Positions 11,093 to 38,034 of a DNA stretch of 38,034 bases are shown here, piece after piece. The translations under genes and the position numbers were made by a program. The notes under the pieces were generated by a model, which was not told where the DNA came from, searched no databases, and saw nothing but the letters and a program-made list of their open reading frames with translations. Positions within the stretch are counted from its first letter, which is position 1. Each line of letters begins with the position of its first letter. The DNA comes from a virus, in the IMG/VR virus record IMGVR_UViG_3300030329_004812, positions 1 through 38,034 of that record, one strand, 5' to 3'.

Positions 11093-11821
11093 GTGAGCAG
11101 CTATGAAAAGACTATTACTTTATACGATGATAGCATTGGTTCGGTATCTTACGTTAATCATATGGGCGACGACATTACCGTTGTTAACAGTGCAAGGGTC
11201 AGCTTTGGTGTTCAAAAGTCTAGTTTGGATGGGCGCGACAAACGACTTATTAATTACCTTATCAAGCATAAGCATACCTCTACATTGGAACATAATCTTG
11301 TTACCTTTAAGTTTGTCGTGCCTTTGTTTGTTCGTTCTCAGCACCATCGCCATAGAACATGGTCCTACAATGAGATATCTCGAAGATATACCGACAAGGA
11401 TTTACAATTTTATGAGCCGAAGCGATTCAGGACCCAACACGAATCCAATCGACAAGCCTCCAATGAAGATGAATTAATTGATCCTTCATACGGCACCGCA
11501 CATGATACAATTGTTCCAACTAAATCGAAAACAGCCTCTCAGGTTGTAGCAGAACACCATCAAGCAAGTTTGAGACTTTTTGATACTTTGATATCAAAGG
11601 GTGTTTGTCGAGAGCAAGCAAGAGGTGTCTTACCACAAAATCTTTACACTGAATATTATGGAACGGTAAACCTTAATAACCTTCTTAAATTTATCAGCCT
11701 TCGCACCCATGAGGGCGCACAGTGGGAAATACAACAAGCAGCAAAGGCATGCCTGGAGATCGCGACAGATCTATGGCCAGTGACCGTTAATTCGTACAGG
11801 AAACTGCGAGGTGAAATATAA
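11093..11821 (+). CDS. thyX: Flavin-dependent thymidylate synthase ThyX
   Basis: This 242-residue enzyme makes dTMP from dUMP with FAD, NADPH and methylene-tetrahydrofolate. The signature RHR-x7-S is RHRTWSYNEIS at about residues 86-95, followed by RRY. A GTG at 11093 with GGGAG six bases upstream is the best start; the frame is open slightly further up to a TTG at 11078. The C-terminal LLKFISLRTHEGAQWEIQ segment also fits ThyX. It works with the RNR (7428) and dUTPase (21336) to supply DNA precursors. It overlaps the next small gene by 11 nt. Confidence 0.93.
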   Translation: MSSYEKTITLYDDSIGSVSYVNHMGDDITVVNSARVSFGVQKSSLDGRDKRLINYLIKHKHTSTLEHNLVTFKFVVPLFVRSQHHRHRTWSYNEISRRYTDKDLQFYEPKRFRTQHESNRQASNEDELIDPSYGTAHDTIVPTKSKTASQVVAEHHQASLRLFDTLISKGVCREQARGVLPQNLYTEYYGTVNLNNLLKFISLRTHEGAQWEIQQAAKACLEIATDLWPVTVNSYRKLRGEI

Positions 11822-12101
11822 ATTCAAGGTTGGTGACCTTGTAGAGCTTAGTGACTTTGGTAAAACCTTAGCAGGAGATTGGGAAATAAAGTATGGAATT
11901 GTAGTCAAGGGCCCATACAGCATGGGCCTTCCTGGTGGTGGCATGCCAGAGGGCTTTTACATGGCTTACGATGTAATGATAGGCGATGAACTATTTAAAA
12001 GGATACCAAGCCAGTTTATTTTAAGAATGGATAGAGATGAAGATGGAAACAAACAAGTGGAAAAGGTGGCTGTTACCAATGCCCCCAAAGATGAAGCATA
12101 A
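11811..12101 (+). CDS. GDLV-family SH3-like small protein
   Basis: This 96-residue protein starts at GTG 11811, overlapping thyX. It opens MKYKFKVGDLVELSDFG, then KYGIVVKG and later YDVMIGDELFKRIPSQFI. It belongs to the family multiplied at the right end of the window: an N-terminal GDLV strand, a G-I/V-V strand, and a final strand with a hydrophobic-polar pattern. The fold is probably a single SH3/KOW-like barrel (inference). Here the copy is longer, with an acidic, lysine-containing tail. Confidence 0.8.
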   Translation: MKYKFKVGDLVELSDFGKTLAGDWEIKYGIVVKGPYSMGLPGGGMPEGFYMAYDVMIGDELFKRIPSQFILRMDRDEDGNKQVEKVAVTNAPKDEA

Positions 12102-15416: not shown

Positions 15417-15713
15417 ATGTCGGATGAAAGAAAATTTAAAGTAGGAGATTTGGTTACAATAAAAGGATTCTACTTTATAGTGGGATATAGTAGTATAGCC
15501 GATGGAGAACCAGGTGTTATTTCTGAGGTGCTGCGTCATGATCCAACGCAAAATAAATTTGTTAATTTATTTTTTGATTATGCTGTTTTAGTTGGTGATG
15601 ATGAGTTTTTTGTGTTTGAGGAGGAGGTAACAGCTTTTGACCCTGAGTTTAATCCTTGTGATAGTTGTTATTGCGACCCTTGTGATTGTGATTGGGGCTG
15701 CTGTGAGCCTTAA
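15417..15713 (+). CDS. GDLV-family small protein with Cys-rich tail
   Basis: This 98-residue protein starts one base after the previous stop. It opens MSDERKFKVGDLVTIKG, with GVISEVL and a hydrophobic strand, and so belongs to the GDLV family. The last 20 residues (CDSCYCDPCDCDWGCC and flanks) contain eight cysteines in pairs and could bind a metal. The DNA there is a TGTGAT-type near-repeat, and the next gene overlaps the last 11 nt. Confidence 0.75.
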   Translation: MSDERKFKVGDLVTIKGFYFIVGYSSIADGEPGVISEVLRHDPTQNKFVNLFFDYAVLVGDDEFFVFEEEVTAFDPEFNPCDSCYCDPCDCDWGCCEP

Positions 15714-15891
15714 AGGTAAAAGTTTGGTTTTTGTTGTCAATTGTGGGCCAATTCCAAAAGGTTCTGTGGCTCTGTGTATAGAAGATTGCAATTTGAAAGG
15801 CATAATTAGGTTGTGGTTACGCAACACTATTTACGGGGTTAATGAATTTGTCCTATCAAGAGAGCACATCAGCAAGCTTAAGGAGGTTTGA
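15703..15891 (+). CDS. Small SH3-like phage protein
   Basis: The best start is the GTG at 15703 with GGGG six bases upstream; the frame is open farther up but only as a hydrophobic antiframe of the previous gene's Cys-rich tail. The 62-residue product has strands KSLVFVVNC, GSVALCIED, GIIRLWLRN and a final EHISKLKEV. It looks like another one-barrel member without the GDLV opening. It is followed by an overlapping gene. Confidence 0.55.
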   Translation: MSLKGKSLVFVVNCGPIPKGSVALCIEDCNLKGIIRLWLRNTIYGVNEFVLSREHISKLKEV

Positions 15892-16081
15892 GCCCGGCGA
15901 TCTTGTACAGTACGTTACAAACTCAGACGTTTATCAGGGCGCCTGGATATCAGTTGGGTCTTACGGGATTGTTTTGAAAGTTACAACTGAATCGAGGCCA
16001 TTTGATACAGCCAAGGTATATTGGATTGATGACGATTCCACCAGGACAATTAGTTGCACATATTTGAAAAGAATTGCTTGA
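15842..16081 (+). CDS. GDLV-family small protein
   Basis: This 79-residue protein has PGDLVQYVT at 18-26, then SYGIVLKVTT and TAKVYWIDDD, the GDLV-GIV-VxW pattern of the family. The start ATG at 15842 lies inside the preceding gene; no better start is in frame. The end of this gene holds the -35 box of the dnaE promoter. Confidence 0.7.
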   Translation: MNLSYQESTSASLRRFEPGDLVQYVTNSDVYQGAWISVGSYGIVLKVTTESRPFDTAKVYWIDDDSTRTISCTYLKRIA

Positions 16082-26546: not shown

Positions 26547-26740
26547 CCAAAGATGAAGCACCAAAGCATAACCCACAACGTAGAGTGTGGCAGGATGCAG
26601 GTATCTTTAACACATATGCCGAGGCTAAGGCCAAAAGCGATTCACTTGGAAGCGAAAGCAAGATTCGCAGATGCGGTTCGGAAGGGCTAAAATTCAAAGT
26701 GAAAATAGTTAAGAAATATTTGGAGGCAGAGAATGACTAA
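26543..26740 (+). CDS. Small unknown protein before groEL
   Basis: This 65-residue basic protein includes NPQRRVWQDAGIFNTYAEA and KVKIVKKYLEAEND. GGAGG precedes it and it overlaps groEL by 8 nt, so the two are co-translated. The sequence recalls short phage proteins that pack a beta strand and a helix (AGIFNTYAEAKAKSD); no family is named. Confidence 0.7.
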   Translation: MTKDEAPKHNPQRRVWQDAGIFNTYAEAKAKSDSLGSESKIRRCGSEGLKFKVKIVKKYLEAEND

Positions 26741-28298
26741 GCATTATAGTAACGGGCAAGAGCTTAATTCAAAAATCTTGTCTGGGATTAATAAGTTAAC
26801 TGACAATGTAGCTACTACCCTGGGCCCGAAGGGGCGCAACGTAATATTGTTTCACAAGGATCAGGGCATCCCGGTTATCACAAAAGATGGAGTAACTGTC
26901 GCTAAGTTTGTTGACTTTGAAGACCCCATCGAAAATGTGGGAGCGCAAATAGTAAAACAAGCAGCAGAACAATCAGCGTCAAAAGCTGGTGATGGAACCA
27001 CTACTGCCACAGTGCTGACCAGAGCACTCCTACAGAGAGCGCAGAAGTATTTAACTGCTGGTGTTTCTCCGATTGAAATTAAACGCGGTATGGATAAGGC
27101 TGTGGATCTTATTGTTGACCGCTTGAAAAGCAGTGCTACCCCAATCCGATCACAAGAAGACATCCAGCACATCGCCACGATTTCAGCTAATAACGACCAC
27201 GCAATCGGAACACTAATTGCGACAGCAGTTGATTCCGCTGGTAAAGACGGATCAGTTCTTGTGGAAGAGGCCAACTCAATTAATACATCCCTTGATATGA
27301 TCGAGGGTTTTAGGTTCGATTCCGGATATACGTCTTCAACATTTATCAATAATGAGAGGTCCGGAGCTATTGAGTACAACAACCCCCTTATTCTAATCAC
27401 GGATGAGAAAATTGAAACCATTGAGCAAATCTTGCCTACTCTTGAAATTGCTTCAAGAGATAACAGCCCTCTTTTAATTGTAGCTGAAATGGAAGGCCAA
27501 GCTCTTGCCGCTGTGATAGCAAATGCTGTGAGAGGTACGATGAAAGTGGCAGCGGTTAAGCCGCCGAGATATGGAGAAGAGCGGAGAAACATACTTAAAG
27601 ATTTAGCTCTTTCCGTGGGAGCCACATTCATCACCAGAGAGAACGGTGTACCATTAAAGAAAGTAGGTCTTACAAACTTTGGCAATTGTAAATCCATTTC
27701 AGTCAACAAACAATGGACAACTATAGTTGGAGGCAAGGGCAATGAAGAACAGGTCGACGCTCAGATTGAGGCACTTAAAACAGAAATCAGACACACAGAT
27801 GATCTTAAAGCTTGCGAACGAATCCAAGATAGGATTACTCGTCTTGCTTCTGGTGTTGCTGTTATCAGAGTGGGTGCTGCCACTGAAGTAGAAATGATTG
27901 AAAAGAAGCATCGCATTGATGACGCTTTGGAGGCTGTAAGGTCTGCGCAAGAAGAAGGCATCGTCGCAGGTGGTGGGGTTGCCCTCATAAGGGCTTCGCA
28001 AGATTTGCTGGTGGCAACAGACTCAGAGGAGCAATCAATTGGTGCGAAAATCGTTCTTGAGGCTGTGGAAGAGCCATTGCGACAAATGGCCATAAATGCC
28101 GATAAATCGCCTGATCTTATTGTGGATAGGGTAAGACGCGCCGGAATGGAAAAAGGCTATAATTTCATGTCTAACGACGTTGTAAACATGCTTGAGGAGG
28201 GAATTGTAGACCCTGTTAAAGTAACTCGTTGCGCATTACAAAATGCTGTATCCGTGGCTTCGACTCTCATAACCACAAGTCATGCCATTGTTTCTTAG
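26733..28298 (+). CDS. groEL: GroEL-type chaperonin (Cpn60)
   Basis: This 521-residue protein would form the barrel that folds substrate proteins with ATP. It has TLGPKGRNV (30-37), the GDGTTTATV motif with Asp87 in the same position as E. coli, and EEGIVAGGGVALI near the C-terminal equatorial domain. It is shorter than E. coli GroEL (548) because it lacks the Gly-Gly-Met tail; it ends TSHAIVS. GGAGG precedes the ATG. With the phage GroES at 9955 it makes a complete chaperonin pair, but the two are in different transcription units. Confidence 0.95.
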   Translation: MTKHYSNGQELNSKILSGINKLTDNVATTLGPKGRNVILFHKDQGIPVITKDGVTVAKFVDFEDPIENVGAQIVKQAAEQSASKAGDGTTTATVLTRALLQRAQKYLTAGVSPIEIKRGMDKAVDLIVDRLKSSATPIRSQEDIQHIATISANNDHAIGTLIATAVDSAGKDGSVLVEEANSINTSLDMIEGFRFDSGYTSSTFINNERSGAIEYNNPLILITDEKIETIEQILPTLEIASRDNSPLLIVAEMEGQALAAVIANAVRGTMKVAAVKPPRYGEERRNILKDLALSVGATFITRENGVPLKKVGLTNFGNCKSISVNKQWTTIVGGKGNEEQVDAQIEALKTEIRHTDDLKACERIQDRITRLASGVAVIRVGAATEVEMIEKKHRIDDALEAVRSAQEEGIVAGGGVALIRASQDLLVATDSEEQSIGAKIVLEAVEEPLRQMAINADKSPDLIVDRVRRAGMEKGYNFMSNDVVNMLEEGIVDPVKVTRCALQNAVSVASTLITTSHAIVS

Positions 28299-28607: not shown

Positions 28608-28958
28608 ATGAAAGTAAGAATTAGCCAAGCAGTAGACTTGGCAGAGGTTCCTGACAAACTATCGGATATTATTTATGATGTTAAGGAAGATTATGATAGC
28701 ATACAAGCAAGAATACAGGATTGTATTGCTGCTTGCTCGATGACATCGTCTTCATCAACTAAATATAGGCTTTTAGCAGAAAGCATCCTTGAAATGAGGT
28801 CAGACTTGTCTCAATTGGATACAACTCTTTCTGATTTGATTTCGATCATAGAGGGTTATATTGGGATTATAGAGAGGGGCAATACACCTGCTGGTTCCCC
28901 AATGCCCCCGGCCCCCGAGCCTGAGACACAGGAAACAAAAGATGCTAACCAAGGGTGA
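28608..28958 (+). CDS. Unknown helical protein with Pro-rich tail
   Basis: This 116-residue protein is helical (DKLSDIIYDVKEDYDSIQ, then EMRSDLSQLDTTLSDLISII) and ends in a Pro/Glu-rich tail (SPMPPAPEPETQETKD). GGAGG precedes the ATG. It overlaps the next gene by 17 nt. No family is recognised. Confidence 0.75.
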   Translation: MKVRISQAVDLAEVPDKLSDIIYDVKEDYDSIQARIQDCIAACSMTSSSSTKYRLLAESILEMRSDLSQLDTTLSDLISIIEGYIGIIERGNTPAGSPMPPAPEPETQETKDANQG

Positions 28959-29166
28959 TTTGGTCAAGGTGAAGCAAGATTCGTTCTTATATCCAGTAAG
29001 TATGGAGCCTTGGCTGGTTTCAAGACTAAAATATCCAAAGTATGGTGTTGTGGTTAAGAAGCTTGAATATGACCAAACAGAAGTGTTCGTTGAGAACCAG
29101 AGGTGGGTTGTGAACGACAAATGTTTACAATTAGTGGGAGAGGAAAATGTTCATAAAGTTAAATAG
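28942..29166 (+). CDS. GDLV-family small protein
   Basis: This 74-residue protein has TKGDLVKVKQ, then KYGVVVKKLEY, TEVFVENQRWVV and CLQLVG. This is the family pattern with KGDLV directly after the first residues. It overlaps the genes on both sides. Confidence 0.75.
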   Translation: MLTKGDLVKVKQDSFLYPVSMEPWLVSRLKYPKYGVVVKKLEYDQTEVFVENQRWVVNDKCLQLVGEENVHKVK

Positions 29167-29725: not shown

Positions 29726-30418
29726 ATGTTGTTGTTTTTGATGTCTTGTTTGTTGTCGATGGATGTATCTAATGAGGCAGCATCGGTTTCCATTGAAAAC
29801 ACTGGCTTGCCTTCGTGTGGGCAAAAGTTAAATGTCGGCATGAGCAGTTCAGTCCAGATTGGCTTCTCTGTTAAAGACCAGGGGTCTGGATGGGGTTCTG
29901 GTAATTATATGAAGCTTGGGAAGTACAGGTTTATAATAACTGCTGCGCATGTCGTAAGTGAGGGAGAGATATTCATTATGAATGGAGATACAGTGGTGCC
30001 ATTGAAAATTGTATATAATAACCCCGAGAGAGACATTGCCATAGTGGTTCCGCTTGGCGACGTTCCTGCCACGGCAAAACATCTTAAGATTAATAAATCA
30101 CCGGACCTGGAGGGTACTCCGACTAACTACACGGGGTACCCTTCGGACATGGGCAAGTCAGTGTATTCCGGCATGGTGTCCAAAAGCTCTGAAAAGGCAG
30201 CGTTAATTCAATCGTTTGCCCTTCCAGGCTCTTCAGGCTCAGTAGTTTTTGACAACAAAGGTCGAGCAATCGGAATAGTTTCAGCAGTTAAGTTGCTACA
30301 GAACCCTTTTTCTCCTTACCCAGAGTTAGTTGAGACTGTTGTGTATGTTGAGAGGTTTACTTTTATTAATAAAAGATTCTTGAAAGAGGTGTTTGTGAGT
30401 GCAGCCACCGGAGAGTAA
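29726..30418 (+). CDS. Exported trypsin-like serine protease
   Basis: This 230-residue protein has a hydrophobic N-terminus LLFLMSCLLS (signal peptide, possible lipid-attached Cys8). The trypsin/HtrA-type triad is His75 in TAAHVV, Asp103 in RDIAIV and Ser170 in PGSSGSVVF. There is no PDZ domain. GAGAGGG supports the ATG at 29726; a GTG at 29717 is possible. Phage-encoded exported proteases are unusual; it could act in the periplasm or cell envelope. The next gene starts inside its end. Confidence 0.8.
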   Translation: MLLFLMSCLLSMDVSNEAASVSIENTGLPSCGQKLNVGMSSSVQIGFSVKDQGSGWGSGNYMKLGKYRFIITAAHVVSEGEIFIMNGDTVVPLKIVYNNPERDIAIVVPLGDVPATAKHLKINKSPDLEGTPTNYTGYPSDMGKSVYSGMVSKSSEKAALIQSFALPGSSGSVVFDNKGRAIGIVSAVKLLQNPFSPYPELVETVVYVERFTFINKRFLKEVFVSAATGE

Positions 30419-30663: not shown

Positions 30664-30885
30664 ATGAAGAACAATAGTTATAAACCGATGAATAAAAATA
30701 TATACATAAAAGGCGATTTAGTGTTGGTTGATGATGACAAGAGCTTTAGAGAAGTGGTAGTTATTTTATCTTGTAACGTGCCGGGCCATGATGCTCCTCA
30801 CGAGTTTTATGAAGTTTTTTCTATTAAAGAGGGCTCCGTATACATCGTGCCTCGTAGCCTCATAAAAAGTAGGGTGGTGATGTGA
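30664..30885 (+). CDS. GDLV-family small protein
   Basis: The ATG at 30664 fits AGGTGG at 30650-30655; a GTG at 30652 is also possible. The 73-residue product has IKGDLVLVDDD, REVVVILS and FYEVFSI, ending VPRSLIKSRVVM. It belongs to the GDLV family. Confidence 0.65.
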   Translation: MKNNSYKPMNKNIYIKGDLVLVDDDKSFREVVVILSCNVPGHDAPHEFYEVFSIKEGSVYIVPRSLIKSRVVM

Positions 30886-30913: not shown

Positions 30914-31087
30914 ATGAGGGAGTTTAAGATTGGTGATTTGGTTCAGCACATTAAAGACAAGAGGTTAGCTATCGTCCTTTCGGACACAAGGCCCCTCCAT
31001 GGGGCATATGTCTGTTCTGTCGTATGGTCTGATTCATACACACACAACTTAATGGATACTCGTCTTTTGGTGAGGATCGGTGCCTGA
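30914..31087 (+). CDS. GDLV-family small protein
   Basis: This 57-residue protein opens MREFKIGDLVQHIKDK, with LAIVLSD and CSVVWSDS, and closes TRLLVRIGA. The pattern of GDLV, IVL and VVW is clear. CGGAG precedes the ATG at 30914. It overlaps the next gene by 8 nt. Confidence 0.7.
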   Translation: MREFKIGDLVQHIKDKRLAIVLSDTRPLHGAYVCSVVWSDSYTHNLMDTRLLVRIGA

Positions 31088-31343
31088 ATTTGGCAGAATA
31101 CATCTTCATAAATCTTTTAGCTCTAAACAGGAGGAGTACGATTGGTGGGCTGGTCGGCTCGTTAGGGTTAGATCATCAATCGGCAATATGTTCATAAAAT
31201 CGCCACCTGTTAACGAAATAGGAATTGTAACAGAAATATACAAAACAAGTATGGGCGATTATATAAAGATTTATTTTCCATCGTTGGAGCAAATAAGCTG
31301 GATGATGGTTGGGGATGTTTTTACCATGGAGGACAAAAAATGA
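31080..31343 (+). CDS. SH3-like small protein of the GDLV type
   Basis: This 87-residue protein starts at GTG 31080. GRLVRVRSS, EIGIVTEIY and IKIYFPS show the diverged family pattern. It ends MEDKK at the first regulatory cassette; the palindrome overlaps its stop. Confidence 0.65.
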   Translation: MPEFGRIHLHKSFSSKQEEYDWWAGRLVRVRSSIGNMFIKSPPVNEIGIVTEIYKTSMGDYIKIYFPSLEQISWMMVGDVFTMEDKK

Positions 31344-31391
31344 CCTACCCATCTACTACCTACTATGGTATATTAATTCTATAATCAGGAG
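31331..31391 (+). promoter_or_regulatory. Regulatory cassette 1
   Basis: GGACA-N5-TGACC (31331-31345), CTACC box, TATATT (31369-31374) exactly 23 nt after the palindrome, and a CAGGAG site. The first half-site is inside the upstream gene and its stop codon is TGA of TGACC. Confidence 0.7.
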
Positions 31392-31396
31392 ACACA

Positions 31397-31528
31397 ATGA
31401 AAGCAAATACGGTTGTAATTATTTTAGTGGCGATGTTAGTTATCGCCCTTGACCCGCAGTGGGCTTTTCTAATTAGCTGTTTGCTGTTGATGGTTTTACT
31501 TTTATCTATTGGAGGTGATGATGGGTAG
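31397..31528 (+). CDS. Small hydrophobic membrane protein
   Basis: This 43-residue protein (MKANTVVIILVAMLVIALD, then WAFLISCLLLMVLLLS) would have two membrane spans with a short loop. It starts right after cassette 1 with CAGGAG upstream and overlaps the next gene. Confidence 0.6.
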   Translation: MKANTVVIILVAMLVIALDPQWAFLISCLLLMVLLLSIGGDDG

Positions 31529-31814
31529 TTTATTCTTTTCAGGCGAGAAGGTTCCCAAAGAGCAGGCAGTTGCTGCCTTGATGGAAGATATGCCTGACTA
31601 CACGGATGATAAGTTTTATGTTAGGTTCGAGAGTGATGATACGAGCACGCATCTAACAGCAATAATTGAAAGTGTATATAACGCAACAACAGAAGATTTT
31701 AAACTCAAGAGGCCGTTGCCTCCTAAATATATGGGCTGGAGATTGATAATCAAATCGGTTCCACCAGGCTACATTGAACATATCATATTCGCGAAGGAGA
31801 CTGATAATGATTAA
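31521..31814 (+). CDS. Unknown small phage protein
   Basis: The ATG at 31521 lies five bases after GGAGG. The 97-residue product has MGSLFFSGEKVPKEQAVAAL, KFYVRFESDD and WRLIIKSVPPG, an alternating strand pattern. No family is recognised. Confidence 0.7.
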   Translation: MGSLFFSGEKVPKEQAVAALMEDMPDYTDDKFYVRFESDDTSTHLTAIIESVYNATTEDFKLKRPLPPKYMGWRLIIKSVPPGYIEHIIFAKETDND

Positions 31815-32004
31815 GCCATTTAAGATAACAAGAAAACATTTAAATAAATATGAAGAGCTTTCAACGTACGATTTGGGCATGTATGCTATTCAAGTTAGGG
31901 TAGAGCAGCCTCTGTTGGTTTACGAAACGCTACAAATAGCTAAAAAAGCGTATAAATATTTTGAAAAGATGATAGAAACCGGACAAAAAAAGACCTACCG
32001 ATAA
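31807..32004 (+). CDS. Unknown small phage protein
   Basis: This 65-residue basic protein opens MIKPFKITRKHLNKYEE and has YAIQVRVEQPLLVYETL then a C-terminal helix. AGGAG lies at 31796-31800. Its last codons run into cassette 2. Confidence 0.7.
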   Translation: MIKPFKITRKHLNKYEELSTYDLGMYAIQVRVEQPLLVYETLQIAKKAYKYFEKMIETGQKKTYR

Positions 32005-32042
32005 ACAAATCAAAGTGATATATTTTTATCACAACCAGGAGG
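31981..32042 (+). promoter_or_regulatory. Regulatory cassette 2 (diverged)
   Basis: GGACA-N5-AGACC (31981-31995), CTACC, then TATATT (32019-32024) 23 nt downstream and a CAGGAGG site. The palindrome and box are diverged compared with the other copies, but the spacing is the same. Confidence 0.6.
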
Positions 32043-32047
32043 AAACA

Positions 32048-32293
32048 ATGAATGAGCAACTTGAAGCTATCAGAGAAGCAGTATATTTTATTCAGGATAA
32101 TTGGATTGGTGAGACTGGCGCTTGGAGAGGCGAAGCATCCGAGTTTGTTGGTGCGATAGTCCAGGACGAAATCACGAGAAAGGATGTTAGACACCTCATA
32201 GAGGCCATCAATGAAGGCGAGCCGATAGAATTAGATGGTTTGGGCGGATCTGTCATCGATGGAAGACTCACAGACGTGTGGGTCACAAAATGA
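32048..32293 (+). CDS. Unknown small phage protein
   Basis: This 81-residue protein starts at ATG 32048 after AGGAGG. It is helical and acidic (EQLEAIREAVYFIQDNW, KDVRHLIEAINEGEPI) and has a C-terminal strand. The stop overlaps the start of the zinc-knuckle gene in ATGA. Confidence 0.7.
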   Translation: MNEQLEAIREAVYFIQDNWIGETGAWRGEASEFVGAIVQDEITRKDVRHLIEAINEGEPIELDGLGGSVIDGRLTDVWVTK

Positions 32294-33078
32294 GAGGGAT
32301 AGAGTGGAAGGGCACCGTCAGGTGTAGTTTTTGTGGAGACTATAATCACAATATAACTACCTGCAAGAGGGTGAACGAGACATATGAAACAACTGCTGGT
32401 CTGGAGTTTGAAGATTTTAACCGTGATCAGCAAGTGGCATTTCGCGAAACAATGAAAAGAATCCAAAGGAGCGAAAAAAGAAAAGCAGCTTCAGGGAGAA
32501 AAAAACGCAAGTCAAAATGCTCTTTTTGTAGAAAGCCTGGGCACCGTCGCCCCACATGCCCATCGCATGCCACCTTCAGGGAAAAGGTTTATAATGCTAA
32601 TGCGCTTTGGAGACAAAGGTTTGCTGATGTTGTAAACATAGCTGGTGTTGGTGTCGGGGCACTTGTACAGATACCAGCCAGGGCAGTCCATTGGTCTTAC
32701 CATCCCACTGAGAGTATAACCTGTTTAGTCTCGTCATATTCGCTTGAAAGTTTAAATGTTTTTGCTTCTTGGCCACACGTTAATGAATATATAACAACTG
32801 CCAAGCTCAATCTAATCGATATCGAGAACAACAACGATATCGGGTGGACCTTCTCTCGTGTAAAGGAGGTGGTCAACAGCGATTTGGTACTTAATCGCTG
32901 GCATAGGGAGTTTATTAATGTTATAGCCCCAGTTTCATGGAAGCCCCCGGATGGATGGGTTGAGCAAGAGAATGCTGAGCAAATAGAATGGTTACTTAAA
33001 AAAATCTCAACAAAAGACTTTAGTTTTTCTAAGGTCAATTCTTTCATCAATAGTTGGATTGGTAGAGGTGAACAATGA
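32290..33078 (+). CDS. Double zinc-knuckle protein (first copy)
   Basis: This 262-residue protein has two retroviral-type CCHC zinc knuckles: C12-x2-C15-x4-H20-x4-C25 and C77-x2-C80-x4-H85-x4-C90. A Lys/Arg-rich linker (RSEKRKAASGRKKRKSK) lies between them. The following part has GALVQIPARAVHW and ITCLVSSYSLESLNVFA, resembling the GDLV barrel type. A Trp-rich helical C-terminus follows. It probably binds RNA or single-stranded DNA. The protein at 35140 has the same layout; both lie in the cassette region. The ribosome site is weak, so coupling with the previous gene is likely. Confidence 0.8.
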   Translation: MRGIEWKGTVRCSFCGDYNHNITTCKRVNETYETTAGLEFEDFNRDQQVAFRETMKRIQRSEKRKAASGRKKRKSKCSFCRKPGHRRPTCPSHATFREKVYNANALWRQRFADVVNIAGVGVGALVQIPARAVHWSYHPTESITCLVSSYSLESLNVFASWPHVNEYITTAKLNLIDIENNNDIGWTFSRVKEVVNSDLVLNRWHREFINVIAPVSWKPPDGWVEQENAEQIEWLLKKISTKDFSFSKVNSFINSWIGRGEQ

Positions 33079-33221
33079 GTAGATTTGTTAGAAATGCTGT
33101 AAGGAGATCGAGGGCGAACAGCGAATATTTTTGGTCCGTTCACGATCCAGAGGAAAAGCCCGATAAAAAAAAGAAAAAGAAAAAAAAGAAGAAGAAGAAA
33201 TCTAAAAAAGCCAAAAAATGA
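33075..33221 (+). CDS. Small protein with poly-lysine tail
   Basis: This 48-residue protein has an N-terminal basic piece (MSRFVRNAVRRSRANSEYFW), a short acidic hinge and a tail of twelve consecutive Lys followed by SKKAKK. It is likely to bind nucleic acid. It overlaps the previous gene in ATGA and ends at cassette 3. Confidence 0.65.
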   Translation: MSRFVRNAVRRSRANSEYFWSVHDPEEKPDKKKKKKKKKKKKSKKAKK

Positions 33222-33270
33222 CCTACCCATTTGCCTCTGACCATACTATATTACTATCATAACCAAGGAG
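33211..33270 (+). promoter_or_regulatory. Regulatory cassette 3
   Basis: The TGACC half-site (33219-33223) and CTACCCA box are followed by TATATT (33247-33252) after exactly 23 nt. The left half-site has decayed to CCAAA. A CATAACCAAGGAG leader ends the cassette and the next ATG is at 33277. Confidence 0.65.
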
Positions 33271-33276
33271 AACACA

Positions 33277-33435
33277 ATGGAAGTAGGCGATTTAGTAAAG
33301 CGTAAAGACAAGAGGCACAATAAAGCTGGTCTTCTTTGGAGGATCGGTAGCCCCAACCCAATCGCAAGAATCCTATGGGATGATGGCTCTGCTGGTGCGA
33401 TGCACATAAAATACTTGGAGGTAATATGCAAGTAG
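33277..33435 (+). CDS. GDLV-family small protein, array gene A1
   Basis: This 52-residue protein (MEVGDLVKRKDKRH; then GLLWRIGSPNPIARILWDDG; ending LEVICK) is the near-paralogue of the gene at 36817, sharing the PNPIARILW block. It has the AAGGAG of cassette 3 and shares 10 nt with the next gene. Confidence 0.75.
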   Translation: MEVGDLVKRKDKRHNKAGLLWRIGSPNPIARILWDDGSAGAMHIKYLEVICK

Positions 33436-33587
33436 GTGATTTGATTTATAGCAACCATGATGATGAGTATGCCATCTATTTGGGAGGCTATGGCTACGAT
33501 GGTTGGATTACTATACTACAAGATGATGGTTCAACATGCCAAGTGCAGAAACAATGGTGGGAGGTAGTCAATGAAAAACGGACATAA
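33426..33587 (+). CDS. GDLV-family small protein, array gene A2
   Basis: This 53-residue protein (MQVGDLIYSNHDDEYAIYLG; then WITILQDDG; ending WEVVNEKRT) starts within the EVICK end of A1. The stop TAA is inside the palindrome of cassette 4. Confidence 0.72.
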   Translation: MQVGDLIYSNHDDEYAIYLGGYGYDGWITILQDDGSTCQVQKQWWEVVNEKRT

Positions 33588-33641
33588 ATTGTCCTACCCA
33601 TATACCCCTGAGCATGATACATTACTATCACAACCAAGGAG
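33580..33641 (+). promoter_or_regulatory. Regulatory cassette 4
   Basis: Perfect GGACA-TAAAT-TGTCC (33580-33594), CTACCCA, then TACATT (33618-33623) after 23 nt, and AAGGAG (33636-33641). The upstream stop TAA is inside the palindrome spacer. Confidence 0.75.
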
Positions 33642-33647
33642 AACAGC

Positions 33648-34361
33648 ATGAAAAAATACACATCAATACAAATAGCAAAAGCTATTATACGAGCAGACAA
33701 GATGGGTGCTGAAAGAGGCGCAGGGATCATGGCCGACATGAAGACGCAGCTTGACAAGCGAGGAGACTTATCAGATCGCCAGTGGGAATATTTGGGCAGC
33801 TTGATAACAGAACATAGCCAAGAGGCTCTTGACGAGTATAACGAATATGCTAAACGCTTCGCGACAGACCAAGAGTATAGGGAAAGAGTGAAAGTAATAG
33901 CCAATTACTACATAGGTGCTGGGCAGTACTACACTAAAACAGCGGTACAGGCCCTGATAGCTTTGAAACACCATGGAGAGGATGGATGTGCCCTACCACA
34001 GTATAGCTCCTTAAGAAGGATGCTCTACAACAAATATGCTGATAAGGTTTGGGATAGCTATACCAACTCCCCCATATACTCAGCAGGCGATTTGGTCCAA
34101 ATAAGATCCGCAGGTGTTAGTCGGATATGGTCACAGCGTAAATACACCCAAGAGAAGATGGCCGGGATTGAAAATCTTAGTAGTCATGCTTGCCTTATCA
34201 TTAAAGTGGACGCTTTGCCCATTTCTGTTGCCATCCAATATAAACCAAAGCGAGGGGGCGCGAGGGTCTATTCTGTCATGCCAGTGGGAAGTACGTTAAT
34301 TTATCACATTCTGGAGTGCGATTTGAAGAAAAATCGTATGCCGAAAACTAAACGGAGGTAG
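33648..34361 (+). CDS. Larger array protein with C-terminal GDLV barrel
   Basis: This is a 237-residue protein. The N-terminal half is helical (YTSIQIAKAIIRADKMGAER; RQWEYLGSLITEHSQEALDE). From about residue 145, SAGDLVQIRSAG begins a GDLV-type barrel with CLIIKVDALP and VAIQYKPK. The tail is basic (KKNRMPKTKRR). It has the ribosome site of cassette 4 and is followed two bases later by another gene. Its unusual size suggests a fusion of the small barrel to a new domain. Confidence 0.7.
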   Translation: MKKYTSIQIAKAIIRADKMGAERGAGIMADMKTQLDKRGDLSDRQWEYLGSLITEHSQEALDEYNEYAKRFATDQEYRERVKVIANYYIGAGQYYTKTAVQALIALKHHGEDGCALPQYSSLRRMLYNKYADKVWDSYTNSPIYSAGDLVQIRSAGVSRIWSQRKYTQEKMAGIENLSSHACLIIKVDALPISVAIQYKPKRGGARVYSVMPVGSTLIYHILECDLKKNRMPKTKRR

Positions 34362-34363
34362 CA

Positions 34364-34627
34364 ATGAACATTATATCAAAAGAAAACATCGAGTTTACAA
34401 CCCCCTGTTATGACGGTGAGGGCATGATAAGAAGAGCCCTGATCCATCATGAGGGGGAGTTCTATGTGGTGTCGGAAAACACAGTTATGAGGGAAACTTT
34501 GGTGTTTTCGTCAAGCCCAACGGGCCAAATAGAGGACTGGGCAGAAGTTGGCGGCCGCAAGGGTGTAGTTCTCGAAGAAGTTTTAGATAACTTTCAACAA
34601 TTCTTGTACACAGAACGGTATTTTTAA
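34364..34627 (+). CDS. Unknown small phage protein in the array
   Basis: This 87-residue protein (NIISKENIEFTTPCYDGEGM; FYVVSENTVM; VLDNFQQFLYTERYF) does not show the GDLV opening and may be an unrelated insertion into the array. AACGGAGG precedes the ATG. It ends 5 nt before the palindrome of cassette 5. Confidence 0.65.
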   Translation: MNIISKENIEFTTPCYDGEGMIRRALIHHEGEFYVVSENTVMRETLVFSSSPTGQIEDWAEVGGRKGVVLEEVLDNFQQFLYTERYF

Positions 34628-34631
34628 ATCT

Positions 34632-34692
34632 GGACATAAATTGTCCTACCCAGATTTTACCCAGCATGGTATACTGCTTATATCGAAAGGAG
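34632..34692 (+). promoter_or_regulatory. Regulatory cassette 5
   Basis: Perfect GGACA-TAAAT-TGTCC (34632-34646), CTACCCA, then TATACT (34670-34675) after 23 nt, ending AAGGAG. Here the palindrome lies just after, not over, the upstream stop. Confidence 0.75.
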
Positions 34693-34698
34693 AGCATA

Positions 34699-34875
34699 AT
34701 GAAAATAGGTGATTTGATACGAGACAAGCGATGGCCGGAAGATAGTTACGGTGTTATAATTTCTATCGGTGACAGGAGAGCGCGAAATCCCTACTTGGTT
34801 TGGTGTTGCGGCAACGGTCGTTTTGAAGAGTTTTCTAAGGACTACATTGAAGGAGAATGCGAGGTGGTACAATGA
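34699..34875 (+). CDS. GDLV-family small protein, array gene A3
   Basis: This 58-residue protein has MKIGDLIRDKRW, YGVIISIGD, PYLVWCCGNG and a final ECEVVQ. It follows cassette 5 and overlaps the next start by four bases. Confidence 0.75.
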   Translation: MKIGDLIRDKRWPEDSYGVIISIGDRRARNPYLVWCCGNGRFEEFSKDYIEGECEVVQ

Positions 34876-35084
34876 AAGTTGGAGACTTAGTAAAATTATC
34901 AGCTTATGGCAAGGCAAGGAGCCACAATTCAGATTGCTTTGGGGGATGGGGGTTCGTAACAGAGGTTGTTAATTGTTATTCCCAATATCCTATCACAGCA
35001 CATTGGTACAAGCTTAATGGCACTGAGATATCTGTGAGGTTTCACCGAAGAGAATTGAAAAGATTTAAGTCGGACAAAAAATGA
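34872..35084 (+). CDS. GDLV-family small protein, array gene A4
   Basis: This 70-residue protein has MKVGDLVKLSAYGKARSHN, WGFVTEVVN and ITAHWYKLNG. It ends KRFKSDKK in cassette 6, whose TGACC overlaps the stop codon. Confidence 0.78.
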   Translation: MKVGDLVKLSAYGKARSHNSDCFGGWGFVTEVVNCYSQYPITAHWYKLNGTEISVRFHRRELKRFKSDKK

Positions 35085-35133
35085 CCTACCTATCTACCCC
35101 TGACTGTGCTATACTACTATCATAACCAAGGAG
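35072..35133 (+). promoter_or_regulatory. Regulatory cassette 6
   Basis: GGACA-AAAAA-TGACC (35072-35086), then CTACC, TATACT (35110-35115) after exactly 23 nt, and CATAACCAAGGAG. The stop of the upstream gene is TGA of TGACC. Confidence 0.72.
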
Positions 35134-35139
35134 AACAAC

Positions 35140-36009
35140 ATGAAAATCTTTGAAAACAAAGACAGCCCTATCTATAGAAACAAGAATGCTTGTGGATATT
35201 GCCGACGTATAGGGCACAATAGAGCTAATTGCCCTCATGCTCCAGAGGACTGGCTCCGCTTTTCCACTTACCAAATACCAATGAATACCACCGGTACTCA
35301 GTGTGCTTGGTATAAGCAACCGAGGTATTGGGGTACTTGGTATGAAGAATGCAAAAAGACCGTAATACTTCAGCAGCGAAACGCTTCCAAGGCCAAGGCT
35401 AAAAGAACAACAGCCCGAAACTGTGGCTTTTGTGGCGGCGCAGGACATACCCGTCGAAACTGTTCAGAGATGAAGAAGTTTGTAGCACAATGCTACAAAG
35501 CAAACGAAAACTGGCGACGAGCAGCGTATGAAATCCTTGTCCAAGAGCATGGTATTGATATAGGCGCAGCAGTAGAGGTCCAGGAAGACGGCAGCTATTG
35601 GAATGAGAAGTCGTCAACCCATGTTGGACTTATCACTTCGATCAACTGGGATAGTTTAAATGTTATGACCGCTTTTCAGGGTTGTTATGATTGGGGCGAA
35701 AAATACGGTCAGAAGGTTGCCGTTGGTGTGATGGTGGATGGCACGGACACCAAACTATCGCTAAAACACATGTGTGAGGGCGCATCTCTTCGAGCGATAA
35801 TCAGTCCACGAAACTCTTATCCAAGGCATTCTTCTCATTGGGATACAAAGCTAATCAAAGTTATCGGCAGGTCAGAGCGTCCATTGAAAGAAGAGTGGAC
35901 CACATCCTATAAGGAAGCCTTTGATTATCTTTGTAAGAAAACCAACTTACAACAGCTTAAAGAGCGTGGTGTATACAATCACATACAGAATTGGGCAAAT
36001 AGGACATAA
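35140..36009 (+). CDS. Double zinc-knuckle protein (second copy)
   Basis: This 289-residue protein has CCHC knuckles C18-x2-C21-x4-H26-x4-C31 and C95-x2-C98-x4-H103-x4-C108, with an Arg/Lys-rich region (RNASKAKAKRTTARN) between them. Next comes a barrel-like part (IGAAVEVQED; HVGLITSINWDSLNVMT) comparable to the IGAA/GALV region of the first copy at 32290. Both copies have a central barrel region and a Trp-containing C-terminus. It is under cassette 6. A role in binding RNA or single-stranded DNA is likely. Its stop lies within cassette 7. Confidence 0.82.
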   Translation: MKIFENKDSPIYRNKNACGYCRRIGHNRANCPHAPEDWLRFSTYQIPMNTTGTQCAWYKQPRYWGTWYEECKKTVILQQRNASKAKAKRTTARNCGFCGGAGHTRRNCSEMKKFVAQCYKANENWRRAAYEILVQEHGIDIGAAVEVQEDGSYWNEKSSTHVGLITSINWDSLNVMTAFQGCYDWGEKYGQKVAVGVMVDGTDTKLSLKHMCEGASLRAIISPRNSYPRHSSHWDTKLIKVIGRSERPLKEEWTTSYKEAFDYLCKKTNLQQLKERGVYNHIQNWANRT

Positions 36010-36063
36010 TCTGTCCTACCCATCTACCCCTGAGCATACTATATTACTATCACAACCAAGGAG
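36002..36063 (+). promoter_or_regulatory. Regulatory cassette 7
   Basis: Perfect GGACA-TAATC-TGTCC (36002-36016), CTACCCA, TATATT (36040-36045) after 23 nt, and ACAACCAAGGAG. The upstream stop TAA is in the palindrome spacer. Confidence 0.78.
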
Positions 36064-36069
36064 AATACA

Positions 36070-36246
36070 ATGAAAATCGGTGATTTAGTAAAGTGCTTCC
36101 ATTCTGGGAAGGTAGGCATAATAACAAGGCGAGCCGAAACGAACAGAGACAACCTTCATTGGACACCTGAGCAATTCTGGGTAGAGTGGCTTGGGTCACA
36201 TCCAACGTGGACACTCCCAGCTTATTTGGAGGCAGCATGCAAGTAG
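36070..36246 (+). CDS. GDLV-family small protein, array gene A5
   Basis: This 58-residue protein has MKIGDLVKCFHSGKVGIITR, FWVEWLGS and a final LEAACK. It uses the cassette 7 ribosome site and shares 10 nt with the next start (GGCAGCATGCAAGTAG). Confidence 0.72.
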   Translation: MKIGDLVKCFHSGKVGIITRRAETNRDNLHWTPEQFWVEWLGSHPTWTLPAYLEAACK

Positions 36247-36461
36247 GTGATTTAGTAAAAGAAATCGGTCTGTGGACCTCTCACAATCCCTGGATGACTG
36301 GTACTAATTTGGATGATTCGAGAGGCATAATTGGAATAATAATTGAAATTGATGCTAATTGGCCAGGGCATTTTCTCATCCAATGGTTTACCGCTTCTGC
36401 CCTTGTCCACAGAGTCTGGATGCCGGAATCAAGATTGGAGGTGATCAATGAAAGTAGGTGA
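36237..36461 (+). CDS. GDLV-family small protein, array gene A6
   Basis: This 74-residue protein has MQVGDLVKEIGLWTSHNPWM, GIIGIIIEIDAN and FLIQWFTA, ending RLEVINESR. The HNPWMT block is shared with the gene at 37765, showing recent relatedness. Confidence 0.78.
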   Translation: MQVGDLVKEIGLWTSHNPWMTGTNLDDSRGIIGIIIEIDANWPGHFLIQWFTASALVHRVWMPESRLEVINESR

Positions 36462-36594
36462 TTTAGTTTATGTGCCTTACTTTAAGGAGTGTGGAATAAT
36501 AGTAGGGTATGCGCTTGGCACATGGCGCATTATCTATACTTCTGGATATCACAGTGAAGAGCATGAAGAAGATTTGGAGGTAGTATGCAAGTAG
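36448..36594 (+). CDS. GDLV-family small protein, array gene A7
   Basis: This 48-residue protein (MKVGDLVYVPYFKECGIIVG, then GTWRIIYTSG, ending LEVVCK) starts in the end of A6 and overlaps the next gene by the shared junction. Confidence 0.7.
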   Translation: MKVGDLVYVPYFKECGIIVGYALGTWRIIYTSGYHSEEHEEDLEVVCK

Positions 36595-36758
36595 GTGATT
36601 TAGTAACTCACGAACCAACACAAGCAGTGGGTATAATCGTAGAAGTTAGTAGAACCAGTGTTTGTGTAGTTTGGAACTACGATCCGCTTCACAAAGATGA
36701 GGGTGAAGAAGAGTGGATAAGCAAGTTTTTCATCAAAAACTTAAAAACGGACAAATAA
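36585..36758 (+). CDS. GDLV-family small protein, array gene A8
   Basis: This 57-residue protein has MQVGDLVTHEPTQAVGIIVE, SVCVVWNY and a final WISKFFIKNLKTDK. Its stop TAA lies in the palindrome spacer of cassette 8. Confidence 0.7.
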   Translation: MQVGDLVTHEPTQAVGIIVEVSRTSVCVVWNYDPLHKDEGEEEWISKFFIKNLKTDK

Positions 36759-36810
36759 TGTCCTACCCACCTACCTCTGGCTGTGCTATATTACTATCAT
36801 AACCAAGGAG
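36749..36810 (+). promoter_or_regulatory. Regulatory cassette 8
   Basis: Perfect GGACA-AATAA-TGTCC (36749-36763), CTACCCA, TATATT (36787-36792) after 23 nt, CATAACCAAGGAG. Confidence 0.78.
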
Positions 36811-36816
36811 AATACA

Positions 36817-36996
36817 ATGAAAATCGGTGATTTAGTAAGGCTCAAGCCCTATGATAACGGCTACGGAAACTTTTACCATTCTAAGGTTGGTGTTCTTTGG
36901 GCCATTAGCGGACCAAATCCAATAGCAAGAATCCTTTGGTCTGACGGCAAACGTGGATTTATCCACATAAAGTTTTTGGAGGTAGTATGCAAGTAG
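36817..36996 (+). CDS. GDLV-family small protein, array gene A9
   Basis: This 59-residue protein has MKIGDLVRLKPYDNGYGNFY, VGVLWAISGPNPIARILWSD and a final FLEVVCK. It is the closest relative of A1 at 33277. Confidence 0.72.
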   Translation: MKIGDLVRLKPYDNGYGNFYHSKVGVLWAISGPNPIARILWSDGKRGFIHIKFLEVVCK

Positions 36997-37166
36997 GAGA
37001 TTTGGTAAAGGTTAGAGGGATAAATCTTGAGCGAATTGGAATTGTAATCAAGGTTCCGCCTTATCATGACTTCTGGGGCAACACTGTTGTTGTAGAGTGG
37101 CTTGAAGGCTTTAGAGAAGAGTTGGAACGAGATCAAGTGGAGGCAATATGCAGCAATTTAAAGTAG
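36987..37166 (+). CDS. GDLV-family small protein, array gene A10
   Basis: This 59-residue protein has MQVGDLVKVRGINLERIGIV, TVVVEWLEGF and a final EAICSNLK. It starts inside the end of A9 and its end overlaps the next gene. Confidence 0.7.
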   Translation: MQVGDLVKVRGINLERIGIVIKVPPYHDFWGNTVVVEWLEGFREELERDQVEAICSNLK

Positions 37167-37348
37167 GCGACCTGGTTGGTATCGGTTGGGATGGAAGGCT
37201 AAAACGCAAATGGCCAGCTATCGTTGTGAGGGTTATAGAGCATACTTTCGGGGGCTACATGTATGTCATAAGAACCCTCGATGAGGAAGCTCACGAAAGA
37301 TGGTGTGATGGCTCACACATCATTCATTGGAAAACGGACAAAAAATGA
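37148..37348 (+). CDS. GDLV-family small protein, array gene A11
   Basis: This 66-residue protein has MQQFKVGDLVGIGWDG, WPAIVVRVIEH and MYVIRTLD, ending HWKTDKK. The stop is part of cassette 9. Confidence 0.75.
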   Translation: MQQFKVGDLVGIGWDGRLKRKWPAIVVRVIEHTFGGYMYVIRTLDEEAHERWCDGSHIIHWKTDKK

Positions 37349-37397
37349 CCTACCCACCTAAACCAGAACAGGATACATTACTAACATAACCAAGGAG
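37336..37397 (+). promoter_or_regulatory. Regulatory cassette 9
   Basis: GGACA-AAAAA-TGACC (37336-37350), CTACCCA, TACATT (37374-37379) after exactly 23 nt, CATAACCAAGGAG. The upstream stop is the TGA of TGACC. Confidence 0.72.
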
Positions 37398-37403
37398 AAA
37401 GCA

Positions 37404-37580
37404 ATGAAAGTAGGCGACTTAGTAAGACTGAAAGGCGACCCCCAGCGGACTCTGGGTTTAGTAACCGAGACAGCACCCGACTGCCTCACAAAGAGGGCCA
37501 TATACTTTGTTAGCTGGTTATGCGATCTCTGTGATGATATGTGGGTAGAAGCTTGGGATTTGGAGGTAGTATGCAAGTAG
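37404..37580 (+). CDS. GDLV-family small protein, array gene A12
   Basis: This 58-residue protein has MKVGDLVRLKGDPQRTLGLV, AIYFVSWLCDLCD and a final WDLEVVCK. It shares the junction motif with the next gene. Confidence 0.72.
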   Translation: MKVGDLVRLKGDPQRTLGLVTETAPDCLTKRAIYFVSWLCDLCDDMWVEAWDLEVVCK

Positions 37581-37774
37581 GAGACTTATGCAGAGTAATA
37601 AAAAAGGGAACCCATGTTCACTGTCAATACGGGGAATATGTTATCTTATTAGAGCCGTTAAACCCAGTGAACAAACCTCTTCCTGAGAAGGTTCTTTATT
37701 GGAGAGCGTATAATATTAAAGCAGACAGGTGGCATGATTACTTTACAAGTGATTTGGAGGTAGTATGCAAATAG
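37571..37774 (+). CDS. GDLV-family small protein, array gene A13
   Basis: This 67-residue protein has MQVGDLCRVIKKGTHVHC, EYVILLEPL and VLYWRAYN, ending DLEVVCK. Cys replaces the usual Val after GDL. Confidence 0.75.
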   Translation: MQVGDLCRVIKKGTHVHCQYGEYVILLEPLNPVNKPLPEKVLYWRAYNIKADRWHDYFTSDLEVVCK

Positions 37775-37965
37775 GCGATTTGGTAAAGGTTGTAAATGAA
37801 TGGTCAGGCCACAATCCGTGGATGACATTTCGCAACGAGCCAGAGGTCTTTGGCTTGATAACCTATCTTGACAATTCTTTCGCAGGTGTTTTGGTATGCA
37901 CTGTTCTGCTTTTTAGTGGAGAAGAGGCTGTCGTTTCAGCAAGCAGATGCGAGGTGATATCATGA
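37765..37965 (+). CDS. GDLV-family small protein, array gene A14
   Basis: This 66-residue protein has MQIGDLVKVVNEWSGHNPWM, FGLITYLDNSF and VCTVLLFSG, ending RCEVIS. It is related to A6 by the HNPWMT block. Confidence 0.75.
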   Translation: MQIGDLVKVVNEWSGHNPWMTFRNEPEVFGLITYLDNSFAGVLVCTVLLFSGEEAVVSASRCEVIS

Positions 37966-38034
37966 AAGTAGGCGATTTGGTAAGGTCAAAAATGAATAAT
38001 GGGATTCTTGGCATCATTAAGGAAGCCTATGACT
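37962..38034 (+). CDS. GDLV-family small protein, cut by the window end
   Basis: Only the start is visible: MKVGDLVRSKMNNGILGIIK. GAGG precedes the ATG, which overlaps the stop of the previous gene. The array evidently continues. Confidence 0.65.
   Translation, partial: MKVGDLVRSKMNNGILGIIKEAYD

What the first reader, a model, noticed from the sequence alone, without database searches (positions are those of the whole stretch)
33277..38034. Open-ended array of tiny GDLV-type genes
At least fourteen genes here, and some eight more scattered from 11.8 to 31.3 kb, share an opening GDL(V/I/C), a G-I/V-V strand, a V-x-W-like strand and often an EVV end. Paralogous pairs share blocks (PNPIARILW in 33277 and 36817; HNPWM in 36237 and 37765). 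Such expansion of a single small SH3/KOW-like barrel in one phage suggests a diversifying host-interaction or anti-defence repertoire. The function is unknown.
Basis: partly seen in the sequence, partly recalled or inferred. Interest (0 to 1): 0.85.

Follow-up and report, generated by a model that had tools for sequence, protein, structure and literature searches.

The report
Shuffled phage array of SH3-barrel genes
A group of uncultured phages carries, at one fixed place in the genome, 17 to 28 tiny genes for the same small barrel-shaped protein with very variable surfaces; phages gain and lose these genes whole, with breakpoints inside a short DNA link that joins each gene to the next, which looks like an exchangeable toolkit for dealing with the host.

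Summary
The window has 15 GDLV genes at 33277-38034 (the last cut by the contig end) and 6-8 scattered relatives. A profile trained on other phages recovers all 15. AlphaFold2 gives a confident five-strand SH3-like barrel (pLDDT 88; nearest folds Tudor and Spt5/NusG KOW). The array sits at one fixed place in related uncultured phages (119 of 142 MoxR loci have 5 or more copies); copy number varies 17-28. In near-identical phage pairs, one to three genes are present or absent with breakpoints inside this ~20-nt connector (12 of 14 indels; null about 1). Single genes are up to 94% identical in DNA between phages whose MoxR is only 58-71% identical. In sister phages the units carry sigma70 promoters. 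Core residues are fixed and loops near-random; dN/dS is 0.2-0.3, so diversity comes from turnover, not strong point-wise positive selection. No known functional family matches. An early host-interaction or counter-defence repertoire is the best reading but untested.

The parts
33277..33435 (+). GDLV gene, 52 aa, first of a promoter-led unit; paralogue of 36817 (54%)
   Evidence: 10-nt overlap with next
33426..33587 (+). GDLV gene, 53 aa
33648..34361 (+). 237-aa protein conserved in the array (61% in G001), no Pfam match
34364..34627 (+). 87-aa protein, 53% in G001, not GDLV
34699..34875 (+). GDLV gene, 58 aa; 4-nt overlap with next
34872..35084 (+). GDLV gene, 70 aa; ortholog in G001 54%
35140..36009 (+). 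tandem CCHC zinc-knuckle protein with a beta domain at residues 129-247 that weakly resembles an SH3-like fold
36070..36246 (+). GDLV gene, 58 aa; 10-nt overlap with next
36237..36461 (+). GDLV gene, 74 aa, HNPWM type; 14-nt overlap with next; G001 ortholog 50%
36448..36594 (+). GDLV gene, 48 aa; 10-nt overlap with next
36585..36758 (+). GDLV gene, 57 aa; G001 ortholog 82%
36817..36996 (+). GDLV gene, 59 aa; the member whose structure was predicted
36987..37166 (+). GDLV gene, 59 aa; best relative is in the more distant phage G004 (63%)
37148..37348 (+). GDLV gene, 66 aa; G001 ortholog 45%
37404..37580 (+). GDLV gene, 58 aa; 10-nt overlap with next
37571..37774 (+). GDLC-type gene, 67 aa; 10-nt overlap with next
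37765..37965 (+). GDLV gene, 66 aa, HNPWM type; 4-nt overlap with next
37962..38034 (+). GDLV gene cut by the contig end; 92% over 24 aa to G004
32290..33078 (+). second tandem CCHC zinc-knuckle protein
28942..29166 (+). scattered GDLV relative
   Evidence: E 1.3e-3
30688..30885 (+). marginal scattered GDLV relative
   Evidence: E 0.028
30914..31087 (+). scattered GDLV relative
   Evidence: E 3e-7
31080..31343 (+). scattered GDLV relative (87-aa ORF)
   Evidence: E 4e-6
11811..12101 (+). scattered GDLV relative, 96 aa
   Evidence: E 1.7e-4
15417..15713 (+). scattered GDLV relative, acidic, Cys-rich tail
   Evidence: E 5e-5
15842..16081 (+). scattered GDLV relative
   Evidence: E 2e-7
31331..31397 (+). 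intergenic element copy 1 (GGACA..TGTCC-type dyad, -10-like TATAnT, SD)
31981..32047 (+). intergenic element copy 2
33209..33276 (+). intergenic element copy 3
33580..33647 (+). intergenic element copy 4
34632..34698 (+). intergenic element copy 5
35072..35139 (+). intergenic element copy 6
36002..36069 (+). intergenic element copy 7
36749..36816 (+). intergenic element copy 8
37336..37403 (+). intergenic element copy 9
36975..37013 (+). example of the connector (SD + start + GDLV codons), reference copy of the repeat family D4
   Evidence: family D4

Best explanation
The region is a host-interaction repertoire of one-domain binders that is shuffled gene by gene. Each gene makes a free-standing SH3-like barrel with a fixed core and near-random loops and exposed faces. 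The genes form short operons of coupled genes with their own promoters (host sigma70 type in sister phages, so probably early). Within a unit, the last codons of one gene carry the Shine-Dalgarno and start of the next; this ~20-nt connector recurs at most junctions. Recombination between connectors, probably homology-dependent and possibly helped by the phage's own RecA-like protein, adds, removes or exchanges whole genes without breaking the operon. The repertoire differs between close relatives and draws on a pool shared by distant phages. Each protein most likely binds a host factor, either to block a defence or to redirect host machinery. Shown: family, fold of one member (predicted), fixed location, connectors, connector-bounded gene indels, exchange between lineages, purifying selection, promoters in sister phages. 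Inferred: the recombination pathway, early timing in this phage, protein binding, and the counter-defence or takeover role.
For: Family and controls. Fold. Fixed core and near-random loops. Fixed place between GroEL/trypsin and MoxR/VWA, 17-28 copies; 119 of 142 MoxR loci with 5 or more members, 1860 + strand against 6 - strand hits. Connector: overlaps of 14, 10 or 4 nt make up 819 of 936 overlapping neighbours in 127 records, with synonymous codon identity far above background in the start codons. Breakpoints: 12 of 14 clean gene-sized indels begin 3-22 nt after a GDLV start, 10 match at both ends, against a null mean of 0.8 and a maximum of 5 in 2000; indels of 1, 2 and 3 genes. Exchange: single genes up to 94% DNA identical while MoxR is 58-71% identical; inserted genes resemble genes of other phages, rarely of the same genome. 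Mosaic: synonymous divergence 0.06 beside 0.57; halves of a gene correlate (rho 0.59, n=65), halves across a junction do not (rho 0.08, n=15). Promoters: 111 of 290 gaps before units have a sigma70 match of 10/12 or better against 6.2 expected and 11 of 1204 internal controls. Selection: dN/dS 0.19-0.32. Parallels: early counter-defence genes of SIRV2 share one conserved promoter (PMC11065993); SPO1 has a 26-gene host-takeover cluster (PMC6873191).
Against: No binding partner, host or phenotype is known. No counter-defence family matches. dN/dS is well below 1 and turnover is only moderately above that of other small genes nearby. Connector conservation is partly forced by overlapping reading frames and translation initiation, so the connector's role in recombination could be a by-product of selection for intact junctions. 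This window's own promoter-like element lacks a consensus -35 (0 of 6). The structure was predicted for one member only.
Confidence: 0.55

Rival explanations
1. The barrels are nucleic-acid or ribosome/RNA-polymerase binding regulators (KOW/NusG/ribosomal-protein-like) that tune phage or host transcription and translation; their number reflects many targets of one kind of process.
For: Nearest folds include Spt5/NusG and eS4 KOW domains; sub-threshold sequence matches to Spt5, NusG and uL24; well-covered arrays hold a tandem zinc-knuckle protein whose C-terminal part weakly resembles an SH3-like/chromo fold.
Against: Net charge averages -0.5 with SD 4.5, unlike basic DNA or RNA binders; no conserved surface patch, only core and turn residues are fixed; Tudor folds fit equally well.
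Confidence: 0.2
2. The array is a largely neutral or selfish by-product: short one-domain genes with a self-compatible start/SD junction duplicate and recombine easily, with little function.
For: Turnover close to that of other small genes; connectors would make expansion easy.
Against: dN/dS 0.19-0.32; units have promoters and SDs; maintained at one place across a large clade; recent within-genome duplicates are rare.
Confidence: 0.1
3. The proteins act against competing phages or mobile elements (superinfection exclusion or inter-phage conflict) rather than against host defences.
For: Gene-by-gene exchange between phages fits conflicts among phages as well as with hosts.
Against: No direct evidence either way; nothing in the sequences points to it.
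Confidence: 0.1

Closest known systems
SIRV2 early counter-defence genes of archaeal viruses (PMC11065993)
   Same: many small early genes, each behind one conserved promoter element; uncharacterised paralogues of known inhibitors; content varies between relatives
   Different: different viruses and folds; no start-codon connector between coupled genes is described; function there is tested for some members, here for none
SPO1 host-takeover module (PMC6873191)
   Same: compact cluster of 26 genes for host shut-off
   Different: SPO1 genes are not described there as one paralogous domain family or as a shuffled array
Poxvirus recombination-driven gene copy-number change, K3L arrays (PMC6115191)
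   Same: copy-number change by recombination at a locus that faces host defence
   Different: there copies of one gene are amplified and homogenised; here different genes are swapped and recent duplicates are rare
Bacillus phage G expansion of about 35 zinc-ribbon copies (PMC7824862)
   Same: lineage-specific expansion of one small domain in a large phage
   Different: another fold; no array connector or exchange is described there
KOW, Tudor, MIB_HERC2, DUF4314, DUF1918, YccV/HspQ (SH3-like barrel families)
   Same: fold and weak sequence resemblance
   Different: best E values about 1e-3 in 1-3 of 85 members; no convincing membership
Integron gene cassettes (own knowledge)
   Same: works like: exchangeable genes between short conserved links in an array
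   Different: no integrase or attC-type site was looked for or seen; the link is itself coding and carries SD and start codon

Membership tests
SH3-like small beta barrel | five short strands with a 3-10 turn before the last strand | tested here: met
   (pLDDT 88.4; E6-9, 24-31, 36-41, 46-50, turn 51-53, E54-58); Z 8.4 to Tudor and to Spt5, rmsd 1.8 and 1.5; predicted for one member only
KOW domain (PF00467) | curated profile score | tested here: inconclusive
   3 of 85 members at E up to 0.5, best 1.3e-3; cut-off not shown to be reached; sub-threshold Spt5/NusG
DUF4314 (PF14192) | curated profile score | tested here: inconclusive
   2 of 85, best 1.8e-3; a BFVD structural neighbour bears this name
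Known defence-related families | match to a PADLOC model | tested here: not met
   4 single weak matches, best E 0.008; the library lists mainly defence proteins, so counter-defence families are hardly covered
Early host-takeover or counter-defence repertoire (functional class) | early-type promoters before the units | tested here: inconclusive
   met in sister phages (111/290 against 6.2 expected); this window has no consensus sigma70 promoter (0/6) but its own repeated element; timing itself not measured
Early host-takeover or counter-defence repertoire (functional class) | inhibits a host process or defence | not testable with these tools
   needs expression assays
Gene accordion / copy-number array | copy number differs between close relatives through recombination | tested here: met
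Gene accordion / copy-number array | copies are near-identical duplicates | tested here: not met
   recent intragenomic duplicates are rare; inserted genes match other phages
Integron | integrase and attC sites | not tested
   no search was made; only 'works like' is claimed

The most novel reading that the evidence does not exclude
A phage gene-exchange system without a dedicated recombinase: a coding connector (Shine-Dalgarno, start codon and first codons of a constant barrel) serves at once as translational coupler and as homology site, so that a clade-wide pool of single-domain binders is dealt out anew to each phage, giving a combinatorial repertoire against host defences.
Probability: 0.4. 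Interest if true: 0.88.

Novelty: new variant of a known kind. Interest (0 to 1): 0.74.

Why it matters
Most small early phage genes are orphans without a handle. Here more than a thousand belong to one family, lie at one place, and are bounded by a recognisable connector, so they can be extracted from metagenomes and screened systematically. If they are counter-defence or takeover proteins, this would be a large natural library of binders built on one scaffold, and a clear case of how phages exchange single genes without breaking operons.

Tried and rejected
(1) Filing under KOW, Tudor, DUF4314, DUF1918 or HspQ: fold shared, sequence support too weak. (2) Basic chromatin-like barrels (Sso7d type): charge near zero with wide spread. 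(3) Pervasive positive selection: not seen. (4) Local tandem duplication as main source: recent duplicates rare. (5) Exact search for the window's leader in viral contigs: none, so the element is lineage-specific in sequence. (6) Cultured relatives: no hit for the zinc-knuckle protein or two array proteins among 50,697 phage records, and no GDLV match in four cultured phages with related helicases (Microcystis phage Mel-JY01, Flavobacterium phage immuto, Synechococcus phage Syn19, Lysinibacillus phage LysYB1). (7) Rfam: nothing at 26-38 kb. (8) Host: MAG contigs with a MoxR relative are labelled WOR-3, Deltaproteobacteria, Flavobacteriales and Desulfobacteraceae; only the Deltaproteobacteria and Flavobacteriales contigs carry GDLV genes, and they are short contigs that may be binned phage DNA, so the host is unresolved. 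(9) Generic sigma70 scan of the window: no excess over shuffles. (10) Literature searches found no description of such an array; the library holds open-licence papers only. (11) Foldseek gave no PDB or BFVD match below E 0.001 for this 59-residue model.
Full report
What is there. The window (an IMG/VR virus record of 38,034 bases) ends in an array of 15 short + strand ORFs from 33277 to the contig end, 14 complete and one cut, all opening with a GDL(V/I/C) motif. Interspersed are two tandem-CCHC proteins (32290 just before, 35140 within) and two further proteins (33648, 34364). The array lies downstream of GroEL, a trypsin-like protease and a series of small genes.

Is it a family? I built a profile from array genes of relatives and iterated it: 377 ORFs in 19 records pass E 0.01 against 1 in reversed-protein and minus-strand controls. 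A profile trained without this window and its closest relative recovers all 15 array genes (E 3e-14 to 2e-5) and six scattered ones, with two marginal. With the GDL motif masked, eight array members still score below 0.01, so the relation is not just the motif.

Fold. AlphaFold2 on 36817 with 84 relatives gives pLDDT 88.4 and five strands in SH3-like order. The best structural neighbours are Tudor (Z 8.4, rmsd 1.8 over 52 residues) and Spt5 KOW (Z 8.4, rmsd 1.5 over 53), then eS4, R67 DHFR and NdhS-like barrels, all within about one Z unit, so they name the fold and not a function. Residues G4 D5 L6 V7, I24 G25 I26 I27, V39, W41, G44 and L54 E55 V56 are conserved, while the first loop (about 6-25 residues), other loops and alternate strand positions have entropies of about 3.4-4.0 bits.

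Anatomy of the junctions. Neighbouring genes overlap by set lengths. In the window the ten junctions are six of 10 nt, two of 4, one of 14 and one of 19. Over 127 records, 14, 10 and 4 nt account for 819 of 936 overlaps. In each class the upstream codons for 'LEV(V/I)' supply GAGGT as Shine-Dalgarno, and the residues after it (CK, NESR, A) are largely the next gene's ATG-AAA/CAA-GTA-GGT read in another frame (sequence). Codon choice in the connector is conserved far above the rest of the same genes (14-nt class: 0.75 against 0.27 for the valine before GDL; 0.41 against 0.18 for the leucine), slightly more within than between genomes, where background codons show no such difference. Part of this is forced by the double coding.

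Promoters. In this window nine ~68-bp elements separate the units: GGACAAAAAATGACCTACCC, a -10-like TATAnT and AACCAAGGAGAA before the start. In sister phages the gaps before GDLV units hold good sigma70 promoters: 111 of 290, against 6.2 in shuffles and 11 of 1204 internal starts. This suggests transcription by host polymerase, hence early expression; timing was not measured, and this window's own element lacks a consensus -35.

Distribution. Loci found through a neighbouring MoxR gene show 5 or more GDLV genes in 119 of 142 cases, 1860 on the + strand and 6 on the other (some loci repeat the same contig). Between the GroEL anchor and MoxR/VWA, seven covered spans hold 17, 19, 21, 23, 24, 26 and 28 copies. 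Searches of cultured phages found none.

How it changes. Against the closest relative G001, flanks are syntenic (DnaE 88%, GroEL 84%), yet only about five of 15 array genes have a clear ortholog, in altered order, and two have their best relative in a more distant phage. In near-identical pairs (for example L166/L167, 97% identical around) whole genes are present or absent. Of 14 clean indels, 12 begin just after a GDLV start and 10 match at both ends; shifted nulls average 0.8 and never exceed 5 in 2000. Sizes fit one, two and three genes; in the 12 connector cases 4-36 bases are shared at the break. Inserted genes match other phages (up to 90%) and seldom the same genome. Single genes reach 93-94% DNA identity between phages whose MoxR proteins are 68-71% identical. 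Synonymous divergence jumps between neighbours (0.06 beside 0.57), correlates between halves of a gene but not across a junction, although the latter rests on 15 cases. The pairs come from different metagenomes and the genes involved are not near-identical repeats, so collapsed assembly is an unlikely cause.

Selection. dN/dS is 0.19-0.32 in GDLV genes, 0.12-0.17 in other small genes and 0.09-0.15 in larger ones. The proteins are maintained. Diversity stems from an old, large pool plus turnover, not from a visible burst of amino-acid change within orthologs. Turnover is only moderately above that of other small genes in the region, a real limit on the claim of a special diversifying locus.

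Mechanism proposed. Homology-dependent recombination between connectors exchanges whole genes and leaves both reading frames, the SD and the coupling intact. A RecA-like gene (3864-4952, named from its sequence) is in the window, but no pathway was tested; random recombination followed by selection for intact junctions would leave the same trace. The protein role (binding different host factors, blocking defences or redirecting host machinery) is inferred from promoter-led operons, a shared scaffold with variable surfaces, patchy distribution and lateral exchange. [quoted passage not shown]

Zinc-knuckle companion. Most records with a well-covered array hold at least one tandem CCHC protein. 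The model of 35140 (pLDDT 80) has five strands at residues 144-243 whose best neighbours are chromo/Tudor-type and ribosomal barrels at Z about 5, too weak to claim homology.

Verdict. The exchangeable array with coding connectors is well supported; the counter-defence role is the leading but unproven reading.

Noticed in passing
window 31331-37403 (nine copies): Repeated ~68-bp intergenic element with a 5-bp GGACA/TGTCC dyad, an invariant CCTACC block near where a -35 would be, and TATAnT; it differs from the TTGACA promoters of sister phages, which may point to a phage activator or another sigma factor.
   Followed up: partly
window 32290-33078 and 35140-36009: Two tandem CCHC zinc-knuckle proteins of a phage family with invariant Cys/His; no Pfam family above cut-off and no match to 35140 in the phage collection.
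   Followed up: partly
window 9303-9905 and 23398-24027: Two ClpP-like proteases in one phage, plus a phage GroEL at 26733-28298 and a trypsin-like protease at 29726-30418.
   Followed up: no
window 33075-33221: 48-aa protein with a C-terminal run of lysines (KKKKKKKKKKKKSKKAKK).
   Followed up: no
window 14438-15415: Amidohydrolase-family gene (PF07969 above cut-off) among replication genes.
   Followed up: no
L180 (contig IMGVR_UViG_2684622992_000003): 36 GDLV ORFs in 14 kb with consensus sigma70 promoters; the contig name has another form than the metagenome records, so its source could reveal a host.
   Followed up: no
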